This document shows positions 2,998 to 40,500 of a DNA stretch of 64,000 nt, in pieces. The translations under genes were made by a program, and so were the position numbers. Source of the DNA: Clytia hemisphaerica (lineage: Eukaryota > Cnidaria > Hydrozoa > Leptothecata > Clytiidae). Each line of letters begins with the position of its first letter. Positions within the stretch are counted from its first letter, which is position 1. The notes below the pieces were generated by a model. The model did no database searches and was not told where the DNA came from. It saw nothing but the letters and a program-made list of their open reading frames with translations. The stretch is taken from assembly GCA_902728285.1 (NCBI GenBank), contig CACVBU010000017.1, positions 881,516-945,515 on the forward strand. Reading direction: 5' to 3'.

Positions 2998-4426
2998 TCA
3001 ACCACTGATCAGTGAAGCTAAGGATACAAGAAGCCGAAAATTTAATGATTTCATTGAACAATTCTAATTGAAATGATAACATTGAAATTTACGATAACAT
3101 TTTACGTAATAATAAGTAAGCATAATTAAAAGATGAATGTCGTGGTCAATTGGCTCCTGCTTATTGCTCCAAACATACTTCTAAGGGGCTTTCTAGTCTA
3201 TCGTTTATAATCTGTTTTATAAGATACTAAAATATCTTCTTAGTTATTTCTTTCTTTTGAAATTAGCTCTAATTTTGTAACCTGTTTTATTTTTGACCCA
3301 TCTTCTTTTAGTTGAAATAAAGTAAATTTGTGCTTTAAAAAAATATTGTTTTTGCTTCGAAAGTTATATCCATTAAAGACTTCAGTCAGAGAGATGATAA
3401 GATAATTATTGGCCTTGACTCTCCAAACACACACTGTGAAAATTAAAGGGGCATAAAAATACTGATGAACTTTGTAAACAAACCGTATGCAGCGGGATAC
3501 AAAATCAAAACAAATGTCACATGTCAAAATAAAATATAAAAACAAATGTGGCTGATTTTGATTGTGTCAATCATTTTACAATTTTGTTTTGGACACGTGA
3601 TTTTAATTGTTCTCTTTAATGACACGTGGTTCGCACAATGTTTACATTTTACTACTTTTATGTCCCTTTAAGAGAATAATAGAAGGGCGTGCATATTTTG
3701 ATATTGGAAAATCTTGAAGAGAATAAAAAAAATTTTGAAAAATGCTAATAATAAAAAATTTTTTTTTGATGTACTATAGAAAGGCTAAATCTCTGATCAC
3801 CATTGTAAAAGAAGAGACCTAAAGTAAGTAGAAGACTCTGCCTTCAATGCAAAAGTTTGACCATTTTAGGTACAATACCCAAGCTAATCGTGTTTCAAAT
3901 TAAAGAAAGAAGAATTGATTTTTCTCACGAGGAAACAAAAAGATGCCTTCTATGGTGCTTAAGTAAGTAAAAGAAATATTAAAAAACTTTCTATAACAAC
4001 TACAACAATTAAAAATAAATTATTCAAAAACAATTAACAATTTAATAAAAAGACTAATAATATTTGCCTAGCACAAATTTGTGTTTATTAACTTTGTAGG
4101 GGAAACCTTCTTAAGGAAAAAGCGTCGAAATTTTAAGGAAAATGACAAAATTTTCCGCGCTTTTCTCCGACGAAAATTTTAACCTAACCCCTTCAACGTA
4201 ACTACAAGCACCGTATTATTTAATACTGTCAGTAGTATGTGGTAGATTTAAAAACATTGATTGAATACTGCATATAAAAATACTTTAATGGTTAGGGCGA
4301 CATAAAATCGAGCCAACCCACCATCATGATAATCTTTGCTTTAAGATTTAGTGAGTGTACTGTTGGTGTAAAGCGAAACAGGATTTCTCGATAGCTCTCT
4401 CAACCCTGTGTTGAAGAAAATGAAAA
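2998..4426. other. Intergenic, convergent 3' ends
   Basis: This is the space between the 3' ends of the upstream + gene and the - strand legumain gene. It is AT-rich and holds candidate poly(A) signals (AATAAA on + at 3316, on - at 4084-4089). No coding exon is supported here. Confidence 0.6.
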
Positions 4427-15355: not shown

Positions 15356-16050
15356 AAACAAACTTGAAAATTGAGTGTGACAGACAGGAAATCTTTTCAA
15401 ACGCGTTTTTTTAGTAAACTCAGTAAGATTAAGCTACAATTAGGGTAGGGCGTCAACAGTCATTTTTGGGGCAAAGTCAAAAAATTCAAGATGTAGTGTT
15501 TTTTATGAAAATTTAACCTATTGTGAGGCATTCTGCGCAATTTGTACGGTCAGAAGTCAAAAATTGGCCGAACCCCCCTGGGGGTACTGATTCGCACTAC
15601 AGGCAAAAATTGGAAAAAATGGCATTTTCTGGCGTTTTTAGGCCTGTAAATATGTCAAAACTATTGCAAATCTTATTTTTTTCATTTGCTGTACTAAACT
15701 TTATGAAGAAACAACAAAATAATCATATTGGGTTGAAAATTGTGCCCATTGGAGCCCTAAACAAGCCGTTTTAAGCCAATTTTGGGTAGTAAAATGCTTT
15801 TTAAGGCCAATTTTGCAAGTTCATAAACTTTAAACTAATTGATTCACACGTCTGAAATTTTCAGAGATGGAAGTCTTCCATAAAGTCTTTAAGAAAAATG
15901 AATTTCAAGTTTTTCACTTTTTTCAAAAATTCATGATGGCGTCTTCAAAAATCGCTTTTTAGCAAAAAAAAATCATATTTATCAAAAAATAGCATTTTTT
16001 AAGGCAAGCTTCTACAAACTGAGTTTAAATGCTGACTGAAATTTTTTTTG

Positions 16051-16740
16051 CAGTGATAGTATTCTGGAGATACTCCAGGGAAATCAAAATCATTTGGGTC
16101 TAGGATGCATCTATGTCCGCCATTATGGAAATAAAATCCCTGCTAAGAGCCATTTTTCAGGCAAAAACCCAAATTTGAACTGAAAAAATCTCTAAATGAC
16201 AATAGACATGGGCCCGAATTTTCTTGCAGTGATAGTATTCTGGAAATACTTCAGGAAAATCAAAATCATCTGGGTTTGGGATTTGGGTATATCCACCATT
16301 TTGGAATTGAAATTCCTGCTAAAACGCAATATTTCAAGCAAAAATCCCATTTTTGACTGAAATGATCTTGAAAATGGCAATAAACATGAACCTAAAATCT
16401 TTTTGCAGTGATAGCCTTCTGGAAATACAGTAGTCCAGGGAAATCAAAATCCTTTGGGTTTAGGATAAGGGTATGTCCACCATTATGGAATTGAAATATG
16501 TGCTAAAACTGACTAAAATGCAACATTTCAAGCAAAAACGCCATTTTTGACTAAAAACTGGCAAAAAATGGCAATAGACATGGACCCAAATTTCTTTGAA
16601 GTGATAGTATTCTGTGAATTCTCCTGGGAAAACAAAATCATTTGAGTCTGGGATTTGTTTACATCCACCATTATGGAAATGAAATCTCTGTTAAAATGCT
16701 ACATATTTCCATCCAATACGTCATAATTGACTAAATATTT
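16051..16740. repeat. Tandem units of 176-193 bp, left arm
   Basis: The landmark CAGTGATAG recurs at 16051, 16227 and 16406, with AAGTGATAG at 16599. Each unit also carries TCCACCATTATGGAA- and AAGCAAAAA-type blocks. Mirror copies lie at about 17000-17760. Confidence 0.85.
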
Positions 16741-18039
16741 TGTATATGTTACATTAAACAAAGAATATAAATTTACAATCCTTTAATTTAGAAATAATAG
16801 TTGAAACAAATTTTTAATTATAGCAAAAATTCTATTCCACTCAACAATTCTTTATAGCCCACATACATTTCCATTCTCAAGACTTGTTCCGTCAAAAAAA
16901 GATTGGATTTTGGCATGAAATATCATATACATTTTAAAACTGGCCTCAATTCAAAAATTGTTGTCCCAGAGACATCTTATACCTAAATAGTTTTTAGCCC
17001 TGGAGTATTTACAGAACAATATCACTGCAAAAAGATTATTGGCCCAAAACTATTGCCATTCTAGAAAAGTTTTTAGTAAAAAATTGGGTTTTTGCTTGAG
17101 ATGTTCCATTTTAGCTAGTTTTAGCAGGAATTTCATTTCCATAATGGTGGATGTAAACAAATCCCAGACTCAAATGCATTTGTTTTCCCAGGAGAATTCA
17201 CAGAATACTATCACTTCAAAGAAATTTGGGTCCATGTCTATTGCCATTTTTGAGCAGTTTTTAGTCAAAAATGGAGTTTTTGCTTGAAATATTGCATTTT
17301 AGCCAGTTTTAGCACATATTTCAATTCCATAATGGCGGACATACCCTTATCCTAAAGCCAAAGAATTTCGATTTCCCTGGAGTATTTCCAGAAGGCTATC
17401 ACTGCAAAAAGATTTGAGGTTCATGTTTATTGCCATTTTTAAGATTTTTCCAGTCAAAAATGGGATTTTTGCTTGAAATATTGCGTTTTAGCAGGAATTT
17501 CAATTCCAAAATGGTGGATATACCCAAATCCCAAACCCAGATGATTTTGATTTTCCTGAAGTATTTCCAGAATACTATCACTGCAAGAAAAATTGGGCCC
17601 ATGTCTATTGTCATTTTAGAGATTTTTTCAGTTCAAATTTGGGTTTTTGCCTGAAAAATGGCTCTTAGCAGGGATTTTATTTCCATAATGGCGGACATAG
17701 ACGCATCCTAGACCCAAATGATTTTGATTTCCCTAGAGTATCTCCAGAATACTATCACTGCATAAAAAATTTCAGTCAGCATTTAAACTCAGTTTGTAGA
17801 AGCTTGCCTTAAAAAATGCTATTTTTTGATAAATATGATTTTTTTTTGCTAAAAAGCAATTTTTGAAGACGCCATCATGAATTTTTGAAAAAAGTGAAAA
17901 ACTTGAAATTCATTTTGCTTAAAGAATTTATTGAAGACTTCCATCTCTGAAAATTTCAGACATGTGATTTAATCAGTTTAAAGTTTATGAACTTGCAAAA
18001 TTGGCTTAAAAAAGCATTTTGCTACCCAAAATTGGCTTA

Positions 18040-18405
18040 TCCCTCGTGGTGCTGGTCACTATGAGGCTGCAGTAGTGAGAAACTAGACACTTTTTAAGGA
18101 TAAAATTATTATATAATGCTAAAACTTTAAAGCTGCATATCTCAACTTCTACAAGCTTTCAGAGGCTCAATGAGGGCTCAAAATGTCGAGTATTGATTGA
18201 ATTTTCAAAATCAAAAAAAAAAAATTTTTTTAATGAGATAAAAGGACCCCCAGCAAAGAATATACCGAAAATGAAACTTTTTTTCAAATTTTTACTAAAA
18301 ATTCCAGTTGCTTTCAACAATTTGTACCTATTTGACTCCAAAATAAGGGTTATAATGATAGTAGAAGTAAAGAGAGATCAATTTCAATTCAAAGAACAAT
18401 TACAG
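18040..18405. mobile_element. 366-bp segment in one arm only, 11-bp flanking repeats
   Basis: The left arm runs without a break where the right arm has an extra 366 bp. The segment is flanked by AAATTGGCTTA at 18029-18039 and 18406-18416. Either it inserted with an 11-bp duplication, or the left arm lost it by deletion between the repeats. Confidence 0.75.
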
Positions 18406-20888
18406 AAATTGGCTTAAAACGGCTTGTTTAGGGCTCCAATGGGCACAATTTTCAACCCAATATGATTATTTGTTTGTTTCTTCATAAAGTTTAGTACAGC
18501 AAATGAAAAAAATAAGATTTGCAATAGTTTTGACATATTTACAGGCCTGAAAAGGCCAGAAAATGCCATTTTTTCCAATTTTTGCCTGTAGTGCGAATCA
18601 GTACCCCCAGGGGGGTTCGGCCAATTTTTGACTTCTGACCTTAAAAATTGCGCAGAATGCCTCACAATAGGTTAAATTTTCTTAAAAAAACACTACATCT
18701 TGAATTTTCTGACTTTGACATTTGACGCCCCACCCTACTACAATCTATATCACATGTTGCTTTATTTGAAAATCTACAGGCCCTCTGGAATTAAAAAAAA
18801 ATAGAAGAAATTGAAATTTTTTGACAAGATGATGAAGAAGATGGATTTTTTCATGTTTAAGTGCAGCATATATACACCATCTGAAAGCTGAGGTTTTCAG
18901 TTTTCTAATTCTAGGCTGCGCCAATAAAATCTGCACACCCCGTCACGCTAAAGACTAGATTTCGTCTGCCATTTTTGATGCTGTCGAAAAATTATTTCTT
19001 TCTGGCGCGGGTAAAGCAGACAATTCTTTGGAAAGGTAATTTTTTGTGTTTCGAACAGTTAGTGTAAAGCACAGGTCACAGGTTACGGAGTTTTTTCAAA
19101 TTGGCGCCGAGATACAGAGGGTGCAAAAAGACGCCTCTAATTACTAATTTTGGCGCCCCTTTGCTCTTTTACACCTTAGTAGATATGGCAGTTTTCGGCC
19201 GAAAAGAGAGAGAAAATATCCAAAAATCTTTGTGCTTACTTCGCTCGTGTCGTCTTTTAAAAAATATTTACTTTTCATAGGGGCCGTCTAAATCATATTC
19301 TTCTAAAATTGCCTCCCCATCAGTTTGCCCAAATTTTTGTTATCCCACCACGCTACTGAAGAGCATCCTTAATTCCATTAATTCACCATTTCCCCAACAA
19401 TATTTAATGTTTCCTTGTTTCTTTTTTAATGACCAATTGATTAGGTGCTACTCAGTTAGAGACGTCAGTGGGTCATTTGCATGCATCAAAGTGGTGCTAA
19501 ATATTTGAGGAAAAATCTTTTTAAAATTTTTTCAAATCTGGTTTAATTTTTCAGGCATTGATCAATACTACTGTATGTTTGATTAGCTTAAATCCAAAAT
19601 GTCAGCAAGTTAGGCTTTATAATATTTTTATGGCTATAGGCTTTATTTTGTACCAAATTTGTGTCCTTTACATGACAAAGCTCTATTTTTGCTTTGCTAG
19701 AACATGTATAAAAACCCAGTGTGGAAACGATGCAAAGTCCACGTTGAATTGGTATTTGATTAAACTGAGGTGCATGCCAAAAGAAGTTCTGTTTGCGGAA
19801 CAGTGCCCGCCGAAAGGTGGGAAAAACTGCAGGGGAGTTTGGGGGAGCTGTAAGCCCCCCTAAACAGGTCCAGGACTGAGCCCTGGTAGGGGTTGAGGGG
19901 GCTAGCCCCTGAAAGCCCTGAGATATTTGATCTTCTCATGCCTAAAAGTTGCTCAAAATTTATAGAAAAAGAGCTTGAATTACTGGAACTTCTAAGAAAG
20001 AAATGTATAAAGTTAAATGAATCATGGCCATGAGCCATATATTTTAGGAATTAATAGGATTAGGGATTAATGTATTAAAAACGCTTTATATTCTATTTAC
20101 ACTCTACGTCGTTATGTAGCGGTCAAGGGGGAGTAAGGTGGATGCGTTTAAACCTGGCGTAATGAAATCGAGCGTTAGAATGGCGATTCTCCTCTCATCT
20201 TGAAAAGCTTTGACTTAAGCCAATATCTTACTTTAAATCTGCTCCTTACGCCATAATGTCAAAAGTAATTACTGCCTCATGCCAAATATATTCGGTGTAC
20301 TGTGGATTCCAGGCTGGAAAACATGCATAAAATGACTTCACTAAAAGAAAAAACATAGAGGGTGAGTAAAAAGCAAGTTTCAGTATAAAAAATGACTGGT
20401 TATGTCTCTGAGAAAAAGTTTAAAAAAAATTGTCACATATAATGGGACATAATAACGTGCAGGAATATATAAATATATAAATATATACACATATAAATAT
20501 ATAACCAAAATATAGGAGGAGTGGTCAATAGATCAACAGGGTATTATAAACATAACAGGAAAACCCAAAAAGTGACAAACAAGAATTTTCTTAAGGTCCA
20601 TTTTTCTTAAAATACTTAAACTTCTTGTTTTAAACAACCATAATGTGTTACTGTGTCATTAAGGACAGATTTCACATCAAAATATTGTTGACAACCAGAA
20701 CTATAACATGGACGAGTGAAATTTTTAAGTACAGGACAACAAACTCTTACCATCCACACAAGATGGTGAAATAGTTATGAAAATTGCAGTTACAGTTTGA
20801 ATTTTGACCTGCTTTTTCCTTTTTTTTTACAGTATCAAATTTAATTTATTATTACACAAGAAAAATTAAAACAAAATTGGCATCAAAA

Positions 20889-26800: not shown

Positions 26801-29800
26801 GTTCTTGAATAATAGTGCCATTGTTAGGTACCAAAAGCCTGCATATGCTTATAAACGTTATGCTTATATAAATAAAACAGGTAGTGTTTCAAGATGGAGT
26901 TCCCAATAATGATGATTTGAATTTTGTTTTTAGTAAGGCACGCATTTACGCATTATTAAGCAATTGTTTATAAGGTGTTTTATTTGAAATCTTTCGCCGT
27001 AAATGCTCAATTTTCGGGCCAGCCCTGGAGTATTCTAGGTCATTTTCTTAAAGATTTTCTTTGACCTGATATTATATCATATTTATGCTTATTGGGGTAA
27101 GGGCTATCGTTTGTCATGCTTAGATTATCTAAAAAACTTTTACTCTACAAGATAGCAAAAGAAAATTGGCAAATTTGAGTTCTCGAGCCTTAGCAACCTG
27201 AAAAAAATGTGTACTCGGTATATTATGTGCAATAGGTAACACACTCCATACTCTTTCGATAGGATATTGGTGATACAAAGTTGGCATACCAATGTTTACG
27301 ATTAACTCTTGCAGCCGACAACGATCATGCTGAAGCTTATAATAATCTCGGTGTTCTTGAGTTGCGCAAAACTTCTCTGGATGGTGTAAGTAAATAAATT
27401 TCACTATGTTTAATATCATAATGTCCTCGGCAATCTCAGTTTTGTTAGCGCCGAGGGGGACAACTTAATGAGATGAAATTACTGAATGTAATAATGAGAT
27501 TTGAGTATGTTTGAAACAAGAAGATTGTCCAAAACTGAACATTACCAAAATCAAAAGAACTGCTAGTCGAAGTACCCTACTACTTTGACTAAACACCCCT
27601 TCGAAGAAACGACCTCCTAAACACCAAATAATCTAATACAGGGCTGTATTCAAAGTAATGTATGAAAAATTTATTAAATTGATGAAATTTCAAATAACTT
27701 CTTCTCAGGCACGAAGTTATTTTCAACAATCAATGAAACTTGCTCCAGGAATGTACGAACCTCATTATAATCTGGCACATATATCAGATAAAGTGAGTTC
27801 TCTATCATATATTCTATTTGACACAAAAATACCAAATAATTCTATTACTGACTCTAAGTGTTTGGTTTTCTATTAGAGGTTCAGCTGGCTTGATAACCTT
27901 AAAAACAATATTATCTGGGACAATGTAACCTTACCGTAACTTGGTCTAATGTCGACATCCCTCGTCTAATTCCGACACCCTTCTTTAAAGACAAGAATAA
28001 TATGAAATCACTGATTGAAAAAGGATAATTCCTCAGTGACCATTAAGCCAAGAAAAACAGTTTCAACCTTTCTATCACTTTCAGCTGGAATTAGAGAAGG
28101 GATGTCGACATTAGACCAAGTTACGGTAACTGATATACATCCTGATACATTAAGACACCCCCTTCTCACAGACCCACTGTTGAAAAATTGGCCAAAATAT
28201 CGTCCTTTTTTTTTCCTCAGTGAAAATATTGAAATAAACCAATCGTCACTGCAAAGTATTATATTTTTCCCATCCCCACTGAATTTTCTGACTTGAAAAC
28301 AATGTAATTTTAAAATCCCAAGCCATAAAGATGTAAAGATGGCGGAGAAAATTCAGGAAAATCTACGAAAACAACCGAATTCAGCATCAATTTACGACCT
28401 TTGCAGCCCATCTGAATGTGTTACAAGTGAAGAAGGAAGATCCAAAGGCACACTTGAATGTAAAAAGTGCAATCGAATCGTACACTACATTTGTTCAAAG
28501 CTCCCCGTCTATCAAATCCAGTTATGTCTAACATACAAATCGAGAGCTTTTGTCTGTCAAAACTGTGTCGTGATCACCCCTGATCTATTGGAACGGGTCA
28601 ATTCATGTGAAACATCAACAGTTTCAGGATTCCGAAAGGAGATAAAAGCTTGCGAAAATATAATGAAAGCCCAGGACGTAGAAATCACTCAACTGAAGTC
28701 CAAAGACGTTAATACAATGATCAGCGAAATAAAGGATAGCTTTGAGACCAGAATGGCAACGATCGAAAAGAAGATGGAAGACATCGTTGAGAAGAAAGGA
28801 GAAAATAGATCACAAAGCTACGCAGCAGTCGCGTCGAGGCAAATCGAGAAAAACATAGAAAACGTACTTCGAAGGGAAAAACAGGAGGAACGACAGATTC
28901 AATCCACGGCGTGCAATCTAATTCTTCATGGTGTTGGCGAATCCACTGAAGATTCAGAGGAGTCAACCAAAATCTACGACGAAGAATATCTAAATGAAAC
29001 AGTCTTACCTAAGAAACTAAGCTTAAGGAATATAAAGATTGAAGAAACTCAAAGAATCGGAAAATTTTCGAAGGAAAAGGAAGATGAAAAACGCTATCGA
29101 CCAATAAGAGTCCGATTTGCAAACGAAGAAGACAAAAATACAGTGTTAAGAGCAATCACTAAAGGAGAAAGATTGCCCTTCCGTGTGACAGAAGATCTTA
29201 CGAACAGTGAAAGGAAGACAATCAAAGAGTGGTGTATGAAAGCCAAAGAAATGAACACGTCACTAAAGGATGCAAACTTTAAATTCAAAGTCAGGGGGAG
29301 CCCTAGGAAAAAACTCTATTTTAAGAAAATTGTAAACCGAACAAAGAGCGGTTCATAGAGGCCCATGTGCTCGCACGGTGGCCTGCGAACTTGTATAGCA
29401 TTATTATTATTATTATTATTATAAAAAGATACGCCAGCGCCTGGCGAACCGGCCGGTCCTCCTGGTCCTTGGGGACCTTCAATCGCTTTTGCTCCCTGCA
29501 AGAGAAAAAGTAGCTTTATCAATTAAATGCACATTAAATTAGGTGTACAAGCTTTCGCCTTGTCAAGCATAAACTTTTTACGAATTGGTTTTAAAGACAT
29601 TTGCTTTCGCAACCTTCACTTTTCCCAGATACATTAAGACGTAAATATCGTCCCCAGTGGAAAATTATACACTAATATTTGTCCTCATTGAAAATAATCA
29701 AATAAACCAATCGTCACTGCAAAGTATTATATTTTTCCCATCCCCGCTGAATTTTCTGACTTGAAAACAATGTAATTTTTAAATCCCAAGCCATAAAAAG

Positions 29801-31511: not shown

Positions 31512-34500
31512 CTACGTTGTTTTAGGACACTTCCACGTGTGAATTATACATGAAATGTATAAAGGGTCTTTAGATTTTAAGGCTGGAAGTTCACTGATAC
31601 CAGCGCATCTGCAGAAATATTCTCGTTGACCTTTGACTGAATCGTAATTGCTTTTGAGAACGGCAGCTTGAGCTCCAACATGAGAACACGTGACGGACAT
31701 GATCTTTGTATTCTAAAATGAAAGAATATAAACTCATGATTATCAAAAATTTGACCTGAGATGGAAACATTCTGGTTTGGTTGGAGGATACGGTGCCGAA
31801 GTTTTCCTCTTGTCTTTGAATAGCTCATATTTATCATTTCGACTTTGTTATGAAAAAATGATTACTAAAGTACACGAAACCTCTGTTAATGGTTTTCACA
31901 TGATAGCCAAAAAAGTGTACACCTGAAACGAATGAACTTTATAAAGAGCCTGTCAAAGGTAAAAGGCAACTTTTGGGACATTTCTTAAAAATAAAAATAA
32001 AACATTTGACGAATAAACTCACCTTGTCGTCCGCTACAAATCTTGTATCTGTGAAAGCCACTGTTTTTGATCCAAATGTTTTCTTCTCTTCATATGTACA
32101 TTTACTGAAGTCGCCAGTGCCTGGTGGCCCGGCCGGTCCTTCTGGTCCTCGTGGACCTTCAATCGCTTTTGCTTCCTGCAAGAGGAGATAATTTTTTGAA
32201 AAAGTGGCGATTTATCACCATTATATGGTTCTCTGCTGTAGAGCTTTTTGCAAACGTAAAAACGAAAAAAGCCTGCTTGTGTAGGCAAATTTGATTCGAA
32301 TTTGTCTGATTCTACGATGGTATCGATTTCATTGTCATTAATAGTTTAGTTGTGTTTTAGATTGTTTTTTTATTCATGATAATTCTATATATCTTGAAGG
32401 AGGATTTTCTTACCAATTTTTTGTTGAGTGCTTCAATTTTCTCTTCCAAATCTTTTATCTAAAAAAGTAAAATAAAATGTCTATTATGTTCGGAGCTTTG
32501 CCAAGATCTTCTGATGTGATGAAAGACTTTGTTTACAATCAACCCGTCAACTCTTCCTATGATTGGAACTAAAATATTGGTCCCAGCAGCTAGAAATCAG
32601 TAAATAATACGGATCAGGTCGGGTTAGCGTGGTTCATGGGTATAACCCGGACAGTGAAAGCGACTGTCCCGCTTTGCGCCCAACAACAATTTTACTGACC
32701 AAAAGATTTCCGTCACTTTTGACTGTCCCGCGTCACACCCAAAACGACTTTTTTCGACTGTCCCGCTTCGCACCCAAATCGGAATTATGCCACACCCTTC
32801 CACTATCCCGCTTCGTACCCAAACAAGAATTGAGCCACACCCTTTCACTGTCCCGCTTCGTACACAAATTGGAATTATGCCACACCCTTCCACTGTCCCG
32901 CTTCGTACCCAAATCGGAATTATGCCACACCCTTCCATTTTCCCGCTTCGCACCCAAATCGGAATTATGCCACACCCTTCCACTATCCTGCTTCGTACCC
33001 AAACAAGAATTGAGCCACACCCTTTCACTGTCCCGCTTCGTACACAGATTGGAATTATGCCACACCCTTCCACTGTCCCGTTTCGTACCCAAATCGGAAT
33101 TACGCCACACCCTTCCACTGTCCCGCTTCGTACCCAAATCGGAATTATGCCACACCCTTCCACTGTCCCGTTTCGTACCCAAATCGGAATTACGCCACAC
33201 CCTTCCACTGTCCCGCTTCGTACCCAAATCGGAATTATGCCACACCCTTCCACTGTCCCGCTTCGTACCCAAACAAGAATTGAGCCACACCCTTTCACTG
33301 TCCCGCTTCGTACCAAAATTGGAATTATGCCACACCCTTCCACTGTCCCGTTTCGTACCCAAATAAGAATTGAGCCACACCCTTTCACTGTTCCGCTTCG
33401 CACCCAAATCGGAATTATGCCACAACCTTCCACTGTCCTGCTTTGTACCCAAATTGGAACAGTGCCACACCCTTCACTGTCCCGCTTCGTACCCAAATTG
33501 GAATTATGCCACACCCTTCCATTGTCCCGGTTCGTACCCAAACAAGAATTGAGCCACACCCTTCCACTGTCCTGATTCGTACCCAAATTGGGATTGTGCC
33601 GCACCCTTCCACTGTCCCGCTTTGTACCAAATCTGGAATTATGCCACACCCATCTACTGTCCTGCTTCGTATCCATTGAATAAAAATCAAATAAAACCCT
33701 ATATTTGTGTGAAAATCACATATAGAAAGGGACATAAGTGGCTTCATTTCATCATGGATATTCTTAGCTTTTTTGGGAAAATCATCCTAAAATATTCTTA
33801 CAGTATTCTTAGGTTGGGGTCTTAATTCAGACTGGATTTAACATTTAGTACAAATGTCTAATATGGGGCGCCATTGTGGACAATATTCGAAGCTCGAATT
33901 ATATATGCTAAACTTCATTCCCGTGGTCATTATATATATTCTAAACTTTCAAATATATATATATGTGAAGAAATAAGAATTTCTGTCCAACTATATTCAC
34001 TCAGGATATTTGGGTGGCAGAGCAGCATATATATATGCTGAGTCTAAAAGCAAATTCTCTCTATTCGATGTATGATAAACTCTCAAATGTGATAATGCTA
34101 TGATTTGTTCATCTTTGTTCAGTTTCAAAATATTCACTACATAATGCATTGCGCAGAGTTTTCCCGATTTCCCCGATTTTTACTCGGCCTCCGGGTACTT
34201 TCCGCAAACAAATAAAGATTGTGTCATAGCTATGTGATTAGTAATCAAAAAATAGGGCGGAAGAATTTGAAATCTTTTTATTAAGCATCATTCATGGTTC
34301 AGCCTTCAATCTCACTACACTCACTCAACTTCGACAAAACCACGTTTGCCTTGGCAAGATAGAATTTGCCTACCAAAGTTACAGAACCGATGAAATTTTT
34401 ATGATAAATCGGGAAAATCGGAGAATTATTTCGCGCAATGCATTATGTAATATATTTTTGTAAGACAATCAGCCATTCAAACAAAGATATCTACCAAAAT

Positions 34501-37500
34501 ATAATTTTGAAACTTATAAAGGTCTATTAGATAAATATTAAAAAGTCGAGCATGTTTAGTTCAAACTTAGAATAAACATTTGAGAGTTAAGAATATACAT
34601 GTAAAAAATGACCACGGAAATGGAGTTTAGCATATATAATTCGAGCTTCGGATATTGTCCACAATGGCGCCACATAGTCTAAAGCATAAAATGGTATTTT
34701 TGTGAAAGGAGTGAGCTTTACTTGGGGGTAATTGACGATTAAGAATTAAGAATGCTCTAAAAATGACATTCTTGGCTGAGTAGCAAAATTCCATGATGGT
34801 GATATTCTTTGCATTATTCTTAATTTTTTGGCCATTTTCATCATGAACATTCTTATAAAGTGAATTATTACAAAAAAAGCGTGTATATTGACAAGGAATC
34901 AAAGTTATAGCCTTCAACTAAATGAGGTAAAAACCCGAAGGGCTAGAAGCGAATTTCCTATGTAGGATTTGAAGCTGCTAAATCCTACCTAAATTGTGCG
35001 GCCTTAGTTGGCTCGTCTTGTTTTTATACAAATTCCAGATTGAAAGTGAAGTTTTCTGCTAGATTTTATTAAATATACTTCTCGAAAACAAAGAAAACGC
35101 TAAATTCAATCCGTCGTCAAAAATACAGCGTACGCTTTTTTTGCCCGCAGATTCACTTCTAGCTCTTTTTGCTTTTACATTGATTTAACCTTTCGAGCAT
35201 CTATGGATTTTTTGATAACTTTTGAAATATCTATCTAATAGACCTTTTCATAAATTACGTTACGCACATCACTTGTCTCGTTTTGAATTTATTGCCATGA
35301 TGTTTAACTCTTAGCGGATTTTATTGCAACTACTTCTATTCAAAAAAAAAATCATTTAATGTCTCAAGGAATACAATCACCATGGAAATTGTTTGAATAC
35401 GAGGCAAGTGATATTCTTGACTTGATTTATGAAAAGGTCTATTGACTTTAAATCTTGTAAGTGTGCACGAAATATGAATTGGTATCTCAATCTCGTCCCA
35501 GTGTATTCCATCCTTTAGTTACGTTACTGATATACGCCAGAGAATATTATTATTTAGCGCCATCAGTAAGCATCAAAAGCTGGTAATACGCAGGGAACGA
35601 TGTTGTTAGCATCTTTGATAAAAATTCTGCCATCATTGATTGCCATTGTCGCCTGATGGCGTCATCATTCTTGAAAATACCGAAAGTATTCTTTAACTAG
35701 TCTCACTTTTTTTTCGCTCAAATTTGTAAGATAATTTTGTAAGTTCCACATGACATGTATTTTCTGGGCAAAAGATCAATCGTTTGACACCTGTTGGTTA
35801 ATTGTGCATTTTACAGAACGGCCCAAATATGCTCTTTCTGCCTAAATCAGCCCTAGGATACTGCAATTACTGGTTGGTAAATTTTATTGACTTATTAATT
35901 CTGACAAGTGTTAGGTATTGAGAGTACATATTTGCGGTCAAATTTCAGCAAAATCAGACGAGTTGTTCGTGTAGGTGTTGTTGATGAAAGTGAGTATTTT
36001 AGGTAGAATACGGACCGATCTGTAAAATTGTGCACACTATCTTAGATGGTCAATACTAATAATAATTTAGGAAAACTTTCAAGTTAAAAGTTCCAGTAGT
36101 TTCTGAAATCCAGCAGGCGATAATAACGTGTATTTTACAGACCTTTTTGCAAAGTGCCAAATACTCACGGGAACTAATATATTATGTTACTAATCTCTTT
36201 TCTTTGACAAATCACCCTTCACCCGAAAAGGTCAACCAGTCGAAACATGATTTCAGTCGAGTTTACATTCTGGTCTGTAAATACCAACCAGACAGCCTCC
36301 CCCTCAAAGAAAAAAATACTTACCCTTGTAAAAAAGTGACAAGATGCTCGAACTTCTAGTCGAAGGGCTAAGCAAAGAGTTAACAGTTACTTATCAAATT
36401 TCAACTCACTAATTTTAGTGTTAAAGATAGCACAGAACTATTTTAAAAATCTAGAATTTCCACTTGTTATTATGATGGCACTAATACTTTTGACGATTGG
36501 GTTGAATTGAATCAGTTTTTTTCACAGTAATCTACATTAATTTACGTTACATTGCCCTTCCAAGTGAGTGCGCAGTGAGTTCCCCGATTTTATTGACCAT
36601 TCTCTGACGTGGATTTTGATCACGTGATCAAAGATGATGGGCAAAAAAAATCAATTTCAAAATTCAAAACAAGTCAACTTGCACACCAGGGAGATATTCA
36701 ATTGACATTGATCTAATGGGGGTTTTTTGACGGGGCTTACAGCTAGCTGCCTCACTTATCTAAGAACTGAATGGAACACGGAAGAAGCAGGGTCTCCTCA
36801 AAGAAAATTGTAAGCAAATCGATTCTGGGTCATAAATGAAGATATCTTAAATGTGATATTAATTTTCTCAACTGAGAAACTGAGATTTTTGGGATCTGGG
36901 CACTAGCTTATTTGTTTGATTTGCTAAAATTTGGCCGTTGAACAATTTGAAGGTACTGAAGTTTAACTGAGTGCGTTGCCCTTCTTCGTGTAAAAAACCG
37001 CGGAGTACGTTTTGTTAACTGTCAGCAGTTATTTTGTGCGTTTTTCAAGTCTCTGCGGTGGAAGGTCAGAGCTATTTTAAACCTTTTGAGAAATTGAAAA
37101 TTTTTTCTCTTTGAATTTTATCGAAAGTCTTACCCGGGTTGTGGCCTCCATTATGCTTTAAATGCCTTAACCCTATTCAAACTAGGCTTTTAGGGGCGGT
37201 TCAGAACTAGGGGGGGGGGCTTTTCCTGTACCACCCCTTAACTTTTGATCTAGTGGGCCTTTTTGGATGAAATTTGGCACACAAGATCCTTGTCACGTAA
37301 GGTAACTTTTGACAAAAAATTTTTTTGGTGACGTCACTCATCATGCCCAAAGTGAGCAAAAACCGAAATTTTCCATTGTTCTTATAAAAAGCTATTGTAT
37401 TCTAACAAAGGCTTTAAAAAAAGTTGCCTGAGTTTAAAATGCTTATTTTATCCTAAATATTCAATAAATTACGGTTTAAACGATATATTTGACATTAAAA

Positions 37501-40500
37501 ATAAATTTGTATTGGAAAAGTGTCAATTTTTGTGACACCTTACTGTCAGAAATGTCATCATGCTCAAGGTGTTAAAATATTCAGGTGTCAAATTTTTTTT
37601 TATTTTGAAGAAAAATAAAAGTAAGGAATTTACAGAAAATTTCACGGCAAAAGCTCTATTATTTCAGGAGCTATTACCAATAGTTTGACTTCCGAACAGA
37701 AAGAGCTCCCCCCCCCTAGTACGAATAGGGTTAAATTTGAAATTTTATACCAATCGACGTAAAATTTCACTTAGATTCAAAAAATCTGAAAGAAAAGCAA
37801 AAGTTTCTATATCAAAGTCATCAAAAGCTTTTAAAACTTGGTACTCACTTGTGCAAAAGATCGCGTTTAAATGCATCTACGTGCGTTTATCAGCTAGGCG
37901 CACTTAAACGCCATTTATGTACTCACTACAAAGTGATTTGAATGAAAGAGAGGGAAAAAGAGTTAGGTGCACTTAAACGCGATATAAAAAATCCCTTCAA
38001 TCTCTTCAAATTTCAAAAGGGCTGAATAGTGTTTACACGCGGTGTGTTTGATGATCGCGTCAAAATATCAAAACTTTTTAATATTCGCGTTTAAGTGCGC
38101 CTAACAAAATCAAGGCGTTCATGTGCGTATATGTGCGGCTAAGTGCGCTTAAGTGTGCTTAGTTAATGCGTACTCACTAGAAAGCAAAAATGTGTTCGAC
38201 GCATTTAAGCACAGTTAGACGCACTTGGTACCAAGCTTTAAGCATACGAGTATACTCGTATTTGGCAGCTAATGTGTTAAAATTCGAAATACCTCAACTA
38301 AATGACGTTAGATTATCCACCTCAATGCAATGGTAACTTTCATTGTTCAAAAAGAGTACTCCTATGCAACCATAACTCGATCATGCGCGAGGAACACAAA
38401 TTTGTTCGAGTAAAGGAAATTTCGAGTTATGAAGAAAGGTTTAGAGACATTCGACACTCGACACTCGACTTAAAGAGACTCCACTATACAAAGTTTAGAT
38501 ATGTTCAGACGTTAATAGTTTGTTTTGCTTTGAAACGAAACGTCTCGAAAAGCTGCGTGAACATCAAAATTCGAAACGTCAAGAAACATCAGAAACCGTA
38601 TTCTTTAAAATAACATGAACATATAAACGACTGGACATCCATCTCCTTTGTATTTTTGAAGATATCACTGCTAGCTTCGTTGCCGCCTCGTTAAAGTTAT
38701 AAAACGAAACAATAAATTTAGATAATAAACCTCTTGGCAATACCTTGCTAACAACGTCAAAACTTCGACAAAAGTCCCTGTTGTTCTACTCTTCTCAAGT
38801 CTTTTATCTATATCATGACAAAGATAACAGAGGCAGAATCGTCGTCATCTTGTCAAAATTCCGACTAATGTTCTTAAATTTGGACTCAAAATTATGGAAT
38901 AATTTTAGAGAGTATGGGATTCAAATAATGATAATTTTATGACACAGACTCTCACCTTTGACATACTATGTTTTTCATGTCATAAAAAGAATTATTGGAG
39001 TGACAAAAGTGATTCAAAAGTAAAAACACAGTTTAAATTCTGCATTTCTGCATTGAGAAATGCTGATAAAATATATTGCAAACTTATGATATATAGAATA
39101 ATTCTTCTGTGAATTACAATCAACGTTTAAGCTCTATGAATCCTTTTATCTAAGTAATTCCAAGAAATAAAATTGTGACGGAATATTCTCAGAATTTTTA
39201 TACCAATTTTGAAAAACAGGCGGCAACGAAACTCGCTTCAAATACACAATGGAAGATAGATGTCCAGTCGTTTATATGTTCATGATAATAATAATGATTC
39301 AAGATTGGGTGCGAAGCGGGACAATGGAAGGGTGTGGCGTAATTCTTGTTTGGGTACGAAGCAAGGCAGTGGAAGGGTGTGGCACAGTTCCAAATTTGGG
39401 TACGAAGCGAGACAGTGGAAGGGTGTGGCGTAATTCCGATTTGGGTACGAAACGGGACAGTGGAAGGGTGTGACATAATTCCAATTTGGGTACGAAGCGG
39501 GACAGTGAAAGGGTGTGGCTCAATTCTTGTTTGGGTACGAGGCGGGACAGTGGAAGGATGTGGTATAATTCCGATTTGGGTGCGAAGCAGGACAGTGGAA
39601 GGGTGTGGCGTAATTCGAATTTGGGTACGAAGTGGGACAGTGGAAGGGTGTGGCATAATTCCAATTTGGGTGCGAAGCGGGACAGTGAAAGGGTGTGGCT
39701 CAATTCTTATTTGGGTACGAAGCGGGACAGTGGTAGGGTGTGGCGTAATTCGGATTTGGGTACGAAGCAGGAGAGTGGAAGGGTGTGGCGTAATTCCGAT
39801 TTGGGTACGAAGCGGGACAGTGGAAGGGTGTGGCGTAATTCCGATTTGGGTACGAAGCGGGACAGTGGAATGGTGTGGCATAATTCCGATTTGGGTGCGA
39901 AGCGGGACAGTGAAAGGGTGTGGCTCAATTCCGATTAGGGTACGAAGCGGGACAGTGGAAGGGTGTGGCGTAAATTCGAATTTGGGTACGAAGCGGGACA
40001 GTGGAAGTGTGTGGCATAATACCGATTTGGGTGCGAAGCGGGACAGTGAAAGGGTGTGGCTCAATTCTTATTTGGGTACGAAGCGGGACAGTGGAAGGGT
40101 GTGGCGTAATTCCGATTTGGGTACGAAGCGGGACAGTGGAAGGGTGTGGGGTAATTCCGATTTGGGTACGAAGTGGGACAGTCGACAATCGTCGTCTTGG
40201 GTACGAAGCAGGACAGTCGAAAAAAGTCGTTTTGGGTGTGACGCGGGACAGTCGAAAGTGACGGAAATCTTTTGGTCAGTAAAATTGTTGTTGGGCGCAA
40301 AGCGGGACAGTCGCTTTCACTGTCCGGGTTATACCCATGTACCACGCTAACCCGACCTGATCCAATAATACTTTGTTCCGAAGAAAATTCTTGGTCCCTT
40401 GAAGATCGAATCAGAGTTCCCACCTCATTATTCAAACCTCTCGTCCTCTAAACTTGAAAGTGTTATTTCGAAGAGGATATTTGATATTCGAAGATATTAG

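What the first reader, a model, noticed from the sequence alone, without database searches (positions are those of the whole stretch)
32603..40371. 7.75-kb foldback transposon with mirrored 45-bp arrays and an exact 8-bp target duplication
Seen directly: AATAATAC on both sides, 60-bp inverted ends, and two inverted arrays of about 20 units of 45 bp. The array units may be subterminal transposase-binding sites, and the arms could form a hairpin of about 1 kb in the pre-mRNA of the collagen-like gene. No transposase is present. I do not know a described family with this end sequence.
Basis: seen in the sequence. Interest (0 to 1): 0.78.

Follow-up and report, generated by a model that had tools for sequence, protein, structure and literature searches.

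The report
Foldback Merlin transposon with minisatellite arms
The 7.75-kb structure is a real jumping gene that has lost its own enzyme; relatives with the same end sequence in the same animal genome carry a Merlin-type transposase gene, and the mirrored repeat arrays look like long rows of landing sites for that enzyme.

Summary
A 7,753-bp element (32611-40363) is flanked by an exact 8-bp duplication (AATAATAC), has near-identical terminal ~165 bp, and has mirrored arrays of about 20 x 45-bp units. It is not a one-off: the 22-bp tip occurs 226 times in the 417-Mb assembly (0 for the reversed-pattern control). One relative (C508, same 45-bp arms, exact 8-bp duplication) carries a five-exon reading frame scoring as an IS1595-family transposase. 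8-bp duplications and 5'-GG tips also fit Merlin. The window copy has no detectable coding sequence, so it is best read as a non-autonomous member moved in trans. Subfamilies keep the tip and the site positions but differ in the repeated motif (45/35-, 34- and 22/23-bp units). In two subfamilies (one element each) the inverted site next to the tip carries that subfamily's own array motif; in the window's subfamily only a gapped, post hoc test supports this. That suggests subfamily-specific transposase-binding sites; binding is untested. I found no Merlin foldback in the held literature. New variant of a known kind.

The parts
32603..32610 (.). left target-site duplication AATAATAC
   Evidence: exact match to 40364-40371
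40364..40371 (.). right target-site duplication AATAATAC
32611..32632 (+). left tip GGATCAGGTCGGGTTAGCGTGG; types C and D differ from it by one base
   Evidence: 226 genome matches at up to 3 mismatches, control 0; types C and D
40342..40363 (-). right tip
   Evidence: 0 mismatches
32634..32655 (-). tip-proximal inverted unit-like site (CACTGTCCGGGTTATACCCA against unit CACTGTCCCGCTTCGTACCCA)
   Evidence: gapped score reached in 4 of 5000 shuffles; ungapped matrix not significant, 27 of 300
32663..32684 (+). first direct site ACTGTCCCGCTTTGCGCCCAAC
   Evidence: own-matrix hit at element position 53
32722..32778 (+). two further direct sites 35 bp apart, entering the array
   Evidence: element positions 112 and 147; 35-bp period seen in the right arm at 40162-40257
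32753..33675 (+). left 45-bp array, 20.5 copies
33676..39304 (.). subfamily A core without recognisable coding sequence; matched stretches mostly about 80-93% identical in other A copies, 69-74% in the divergent C517 and C169 copies
39305..40182 (-). right 45-bp array, 19.5 copies
40162..40257 (-). 35-bp unit stretch, 2.7 copies, between right array and tip
33862..34676 (.). nested 815-bp element, 6-bp duplication GTCTAA, inverted ends TATGGGGCGCCATTG..., a gap in the matched A copies
37171..37730 (.). nested piggyBac-like element, TTAA duplication, ends CCCTATTC/GAATAGGG, a gap in the matched A copies
   Evidence: piggyBac assignment recalled from the TTAA/CCC signature

Best explanation
The element is a non-autonomous foldback member of a Merlin-superfamily (IS1595/IS1016-related) cut-and-paste family. 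Shown: it is flanked by an exact 8-bp duplication, and it shares tip, subterminal domain and 45-bp arrays with elements that carry a Merlin transposase gene (subfamily B). Inferred: that transposase recognises the tip plus a row of 22-bp sites. The row starts with an inverted site at about 24-46 bp, then a direct site at about 53 bp, then two sites 35 bp apart, then the 45-bp array. The transposase pairs the two ends, excises the element and reinserts it with an 8-bp stagger. Inferred: arrays lengthen and shorten by unequal exchange or slippage, and the two arms of one element exchange sequence; exchange is supported in some copies, not in this one. The long array would offset the cost of element length by loading many transposase molecules, as proposed for Galileo. 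In this copy the insertion is old enough for two other transposons to have entered the core.
For: Transposase: the core of C731 hits DDE_Tnp_IS1595 at 7.2e-7. C508 exons with GT-AG borders, joined, score 1.1e-18 with Pfam PF12762 and 2.3e-28, 99.6 bits against a cut-off of 75, with NCBIfam IS1595. C207 shows five matching segments of the same protein in order. Link of ends and enzyme: 17 of 33 tip pairs enclose a transposase hit, 0.05 expected (using 100 listed tips of 226 and 74 hits). Same arms, different cores: ends are about equally alike within and between A and B (A-A 0.933, A-B 0.929, B-B 0.921), while the A core found no B copy and the B cores met the A-type loci only in short stretches (matches under 100 bp not shown: L034 about 150-160 bp, L033 127 bp, L010 205 bp outside its element). 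8-bp duplications. Sites: 561 units from 12 copies, collected at 31 or more of 45 matches to the consensus, keep positions 1-22, 26-30 and 33-43 mostly at 92-99% (87-88% at positions 8 and 15) with five freely varying positions, 23-25 and 31-32. In C and D the tip-proximal inverted site matches its own matrix above all 300 shuffles; the other matrices are reached by 8-57 of 300. Arm exchange: own left and right arrays are closer than re-paired ones, 0 of 10,000.
Against: No transposition, excision or binding was observed. The empty-site search did not complete (nine requests). C161 and C594 lack duplications, and 26 of 100 listed tips have no listed partner. In the window copy the two arrays are not closer to each other than to other copies (rank 4, longest shared run 1 unit); the arm-exchange signal comes from 5 of 12 copies, the other 7 do not show it. 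In subfamily A the inverted site fails the ungapped matrix test (27 of 300) and passes only with a gap (4 of 5000, a test chosen afterwards); the divergent copy C604 shows no such site. Alignment of A with C beyond the tip is not significant (90 of 500), nor of the 45-bp with the 34-bp unit (127 of 1000).
Confidence: 0.9

Rival explanations
1. The arrays have no role: they are minisatellites that happened to sit near the tip and expand by slippage and unequal exchange; concerted divergence between subfamilies is ordinary satellite homogenisation.
For: Array length varies from 6 to 63 units among 12 copies; arms homogenise within some elements; Merlin elements with internal tandem repeats are described, with no role given in the passages I saw (PMC8101967).
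Against: The inverted site next to the tip, which unequal crossing-over in a direct array cannot easily homogenise, carries the own array motif in C and D. The 22-bp block is the part common to the 35-bp and 45-bp spacings.
Confidence: 0.35
2. A Mutator-type foldback (Drosophila FB, Tetris, Tm1 kind) with 8-10 bp duplications.
For: Same anatomy; Tetris shows 8-9 bp duplications (PMC4079207, passages read).
Against: The enzyme between the same tips is IS1595/Merlin; no other Pfam family came above its cut-off in the cores examined.
Confidence: 0.02
3. Assembly artefact or inverted segmental duplication rather than a transposon.
For: Inverted repeats are prone to misassembly; the C886 pair lies 158.7 kb apart.
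Against: Many copies with different 8-bp duplications and different array lengths.
Confidence: 0.01
4. The main present-day effect is on RNA: the arms form a ~1-kb hairpin in a host intron that feeds editing or small-RNA pathways.
For: Predicted duplex on the gene strand -1829.8 kcal/mol with 967 of 1063 nt paired; five shuffled pairs of arms gave -557 to -595.
Against: No transcription data; gene model unsupported by Pfam; any foldback would give this.
Confidence: 0.1

Closest known systems
Merlin superfamily (Feschotte 2004, as summarised in PMC8101967, passages read)
   Same: IS1595-type DDE transposase, 8-bp duplications, 5'-GG tip
   Different: Described Merlin TIRs are 24-462 bp (PMC8101967); here the inverted arms with arrays are about 0.4-3 kb, elements mostly 5.8-16.6 kb (32 of 33 pairs), and the repeats form mirrored arms
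Galileo (P superfamily, PMC3688188: abstract, discussion and section 2.5 read)
   Same: Long internally repetitive TIRs, tip conserved between families, family-specific inner TIR, further transposase binding sites in the repeats, several subfamilies in one genome
   Different: THAP/P-type transposase instead of IS1595; binding was shown there by footprint and EMSA, here only inferred
Tetris (PMC4079207, passages read) and FB / Tm1 foldbacks (PMC3169594, listing only)
   Same: Flanking domain, tandem-repeat TIR domain, variable non-coding middle
   Different: Assigned to the Mutator superfamily; for Tetris no autonomous partner was found, here candidates were
MULEs with tandem TIRs (PMC3310237, abstract and section list seen)
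   Same: A second end stacked inside the first, as in C207
   Different: Plant Mutator elements; here the inner end belongs to a different array type
Sea-urchin TU foldback elements (recalled; only a mention of sea urchin was seen, PMC4079207)
   Same: Recalled: modular inverted arms with short tandem repeats and 8-bp duplications
   Different: Not compared by sequence here

Membership tests
Merlin superfamily | transposase with DDE_Tnp_IS1595 domain between the same ends | tested here: met
   Met by relatives, absent in the window copy; window core negative
Merlin superfamily | 8- or 9-bp target-site duplication | tested here: met
   11 of 14 copies 8/8 (one of them with a damaged tip), 1 of 14 7/8, 2 of 14 none
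Merlin superfamily | TIR begins 5'-GG | tested here: met
   GGATCAGG at both ends of the window copy and at nearly all ends read
Merlin superfamily | DDE catalytic triad | tested here: met
   QIDES, HSDQW, IESYW read in C508 exons; assignment of the three residues rests on recalled Merlin motifs, supported by near-full domain matches
Merlin superfamily | TIR length in the described range 24-462 bp | tested here: inconclusive
   Near-identical terminal part of about 165 bp is in range; the whole inverted arm of about 1.07 kb exceeds it. The range is descriptive, from PMC8101967
Foldback class (structural) | long inverted arms made of tandem short repeats around a variable middle domain | tested here: met
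   two different cores A and B
Mutator superfamily foldbacks | Mutator-type transposase | tested here: not met
   IS1595 type instead
Galileo / P superfamily | THAP/P-type transposase | tested here: not met
   IS1595 type instead
Galileo-like function | transposase binds sites inside the arm repeats | not testable with these tools
   needs footprint or EMSA

The most novel reading that the evidence does not exclude
Within one genome a Merlin lineage has repeatedly rewritten its recognition motif. The 22-bp tip and the site positions stay fixed, while the inverted tip-proximal site, the single direct sites and whole minisatellite arms change together in each subfamily, tracking a diverging transposase N-terminus. 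The long arms would be specificity arrays that let sister transposases tell their own ends apart, and subfamilies can stack one end inside another (C207).
Probability: 0.4. Interest if true: 0.7.

Novelty: new variant of a known kind. Interest (0 to 1): 0.55.

Why it matters
The enzyme behind a foldback element is often unknown; most foldbacks seem to be Mutator, with exceptions (PMC4079207, passage read). Here a foldback with mirrored minisatellite arms can be tied to a Merlin transposase with candidate autonomous partners in the same genome. If the sites are bound as inferred, the subfamilies form a ready-made series for testing whether arm repeats give transposase specificity, and how a transposon can change its recognition motif at every site at once.

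Tried and rejected
Searching the A core for any gene: none by Pfam in six frames of the window core and six frames of L019 1682-6600, and none by tblastn with the C508 protein (whose query had the last exon misread). Treating the 34-bp and 45-bp units as alignable: not significant. Treating C and A subterminal parts as homologous beyond the tip: not significant. Identity of left and right 165-bp ends as a sign of recent insertion: only weakly above re-pairing (0.955 against 0.935, p 0.011), so not used for dating. A giant 158-kb transposon on C886: the A core is split there around core position 3019-3203, so a later large insertion, rearrangement or assembly join in an ordinary copy is likelier; not resolved. 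Empty site: not completed. One search read the last exon in the wrong phase; the reading (ending YPQ), supported by C207, is used. One search stopped with an error after its duplex part; one search repeated the rest. Target preference: 12 duplications are 73% A+T, only somewhat above the window's own composition, so no preference is claimed.

Not done: organism named, alleles in other individuals, Repbase or Dfam comparison (no such tool), the 126 tips beyond the 100 listed.
Full report
WHAT IS THERE. The window holds a 7,753-bp element at 32611-40363 flanked by an exact 8-bp duplication, AATAATAC. Its terminal ~165 bp match in inverted orientation at about 98%; then arrays of 45-bp units follow, 20.5 copies on the left and 19.5 on the right, with 592 nt of ungapped 89% complementarity in the best register. 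Predicted pairing of the arms as RNA is strong on both strands (-1909.6 and -1829.8 kcal/mol; five shuffled pairs -557 to -595). The core has no protein family hit in six frames. It carries two nested elements that appear as gaps in the matched A copies: one at 33862-34676 with a 6-bp duplication, and a piggyBac-like one at 37171-37730 with TTAA.

IT IS A FAMILY. A search with the first 158 bp gave 44 matches, with 40 of 94 candidates scored. The 22-bp tip with up to 3 mismatches occurs 226 times, against 0 for the reversed pattern (100 places listed). Adjacent forward/reverse tips in that list form 37 pairs; 33 of them are 1-20 kb apart, 32 of these 5.8-16.6 kb and one 1.3 kb, median 8,982 bp; 26 listed tips have no listed partner. 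Of 14 copies read at both ends, 11 show 8/8 duplications (one with a damaged left tip), one 7/8 and two none; the short structures C517 and C628 were left out. Array length differs between copies and between arms, from 6 to 63 units in 12 copies.

THE ENZYME. Copies with the same ends fall into A (window-type core) and B (C508, C731, C882, C256). The A core found no B copy, and the B cores met A-type loci only in short stretches: about 150-160 bp of L034, 127 bp of L033, and 205 bp of L010 outside its element (matches under 100 bp not shown). In B, six-frame translation of C731 hits DDE_Tnp_IS1595 (7.2e-7, 29.8 bits, cut-off 27). In C508 five exons with plausible GT-AG borders read as one open frame; the joined 309-residue protein scores 1.1e-18 with PF12762 and 2.3e-28 with the IS1595 transposase model, above its cut-off. 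In the other three B copies the gene is damaged: indels in exon 1 of C731, a truncated exon 1 and a stop in exon 3 of C882, an interruption and a stop in C256. Genome-wide, 74 matches to PF12762 were found at E up to 0.01; 17 lie inside 17 of the 33 tip pairs, against 0.05 expected from their total span. The other 57 hits were not assigned; two of them lie within 12 kb of an unpaired tip (C256, C403). Two more subfamilies appear by tip: 20 exact matches of type C and 22 of type D. The one C element fetched (C207, 5,815 bp, exact TCTCGATC duplication) has five segments matching the C508 transposase at 69-86% identity. So the family belongs to the Merlin superfamily, whose described marks are a 5'-GG tip, 8-9 bp duplications and the IS1595 domain (PMC8101967, passages), and the window copy is a non-autonomous member.

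THE ARMS. In 561 units from 12 copies, collected at 31 or more of 45 matches to the consensus, positions 1-22, 26-30 and 33-43 are mostly 92-99% conserved (87-88% at positions 8 and 15), while positions 23-25 and 31-32 vary freely. Units in one array and in the opposite arm of the same element are similarly close (mean 4.66 and 4.73 differences) and closer than units of different elements (5.30-5.64). Re-pairing arms never reaches the observed closeness in 10,000 trials; C508 and C554 share runs of 7 and 5 identical consecutive units between own arms, while between elements runs are at most 3. This points to sequence exchange between the arms of one element. The signal comes from 5 of 12 copies (C508, C554, C865, C643, C731); the other 7, the window copy among them, do not show it.

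SUBFAMILY-SPECIFIC SITES. C207 has mirrored arrays of a different, 34-bp unit (49 and 10.5 copies). The D left arm read on C883 has 22/23-bp units (21.4 copies). A and D share spacers beyond the tip (score 62.5, best of 500 shuffles 47); A and C do not align significantly there (90 of 500). A scan with matrices built from arrays finds, at positions 24-28 on the minus strand and 52-57 on the plus strand, sites that match the own array motif in C (both ends of one element) and D (one end); the inverted site exceeds all 300 shuffles with its own matrix, while other matrices are reached by 8-57 of 300. In A the inverted site needs one gap (4 of 5000 shuffles, a test chosen after the ungapped one gave 27 of 300), and the divergent copy C604 shows none. 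C207 also holds, inside its outer left array, an older tip followed by a D-type 23-bp array: one end stacked in another.

HOW IT MOST LIKELY WORKS. Cut-and-paste by Merlin transposase supplied in trans by B-type relatives (inferred from shared ends). The repeated 22-bp block is the likely transposase or accessory binding site (inferred, about 0.6). Galileo gives the precedent: long repetitive TIRs with transposase sites found by footprint and sequence, and binding that differs between subfamilies (PMC3688188, abstract, discussion and section 2.5 read). Between C508 and C207 the matched transposase segments differ most in the N-terminal and last exons (69% each) and least in the catalytic exon (86% over an alignment that includes some intron-derived residues); two proteins are too few to prove co-divergence with the motif.

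WHAT IS NEW. A search of the held library for Merlin with foldback found 5 papers, none describing a Merlin foldback by title and start of abstract (the spelling fold-back was not searched); wider searches gave none either (listings only). Tandem repeats inside Merlin elements are described (PMC8101967). New here, as far as these searches go: a Merlin lineage with foldback architecture, kilobase minisatellite arms, candidate autonomous partners and several array types sharing one tip. Novelty is therefore a new variant of a known kind.

Noticed in passing
window 15472-18717: A second, different foldback-like structure: inverted arms at 92-98% (303 of 312 aligned columns identical at the ends) containing 176-188-bp tandem units around a ~420-bp middle.
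   Followed up: partly
window 33862-34676: Nested 815-bp DNA element with inverted ends of about 69 bp and 6-bp duplication GTCTAA.
   Followed up: partly
window 37171-37730: Nested 560-bp piggyBac-like element with TTAA duplication.
   Followed up: partly
G000 C886:44577-203233 (L024, L025): Two arms of one A-type copy with the same 8-bp duplication TCAAATTC lie 158.7 kb apart; the core is split between them. Large insertion, rearrangement or assembly join, unresolved.
   Followed up: partly
L025 1054-3291: Head-to-head inverted arrays of a 31-bp unit (14.6 and 58.5 copies) beside the split core.
   Followed up: no
L040 about 2080-2385: Internal decayed tip plus D-type 23-bp array inside the outer 34-bp arm of C207: stacked ends.
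   Followed up: partly
window 28297-29358: 353-aa open frame with a weak PHD-finger match (0.0077, below cut-off); a similar open frame lies in L029 from 2457 (seen by eye), perhaps a retroelement ORF.
   Followed up: no
L016 and L020/L021 (C161, C594): Copies with both tips but no matching 8-bp duplication, possible products of recombination between elements.
   Followed up: no
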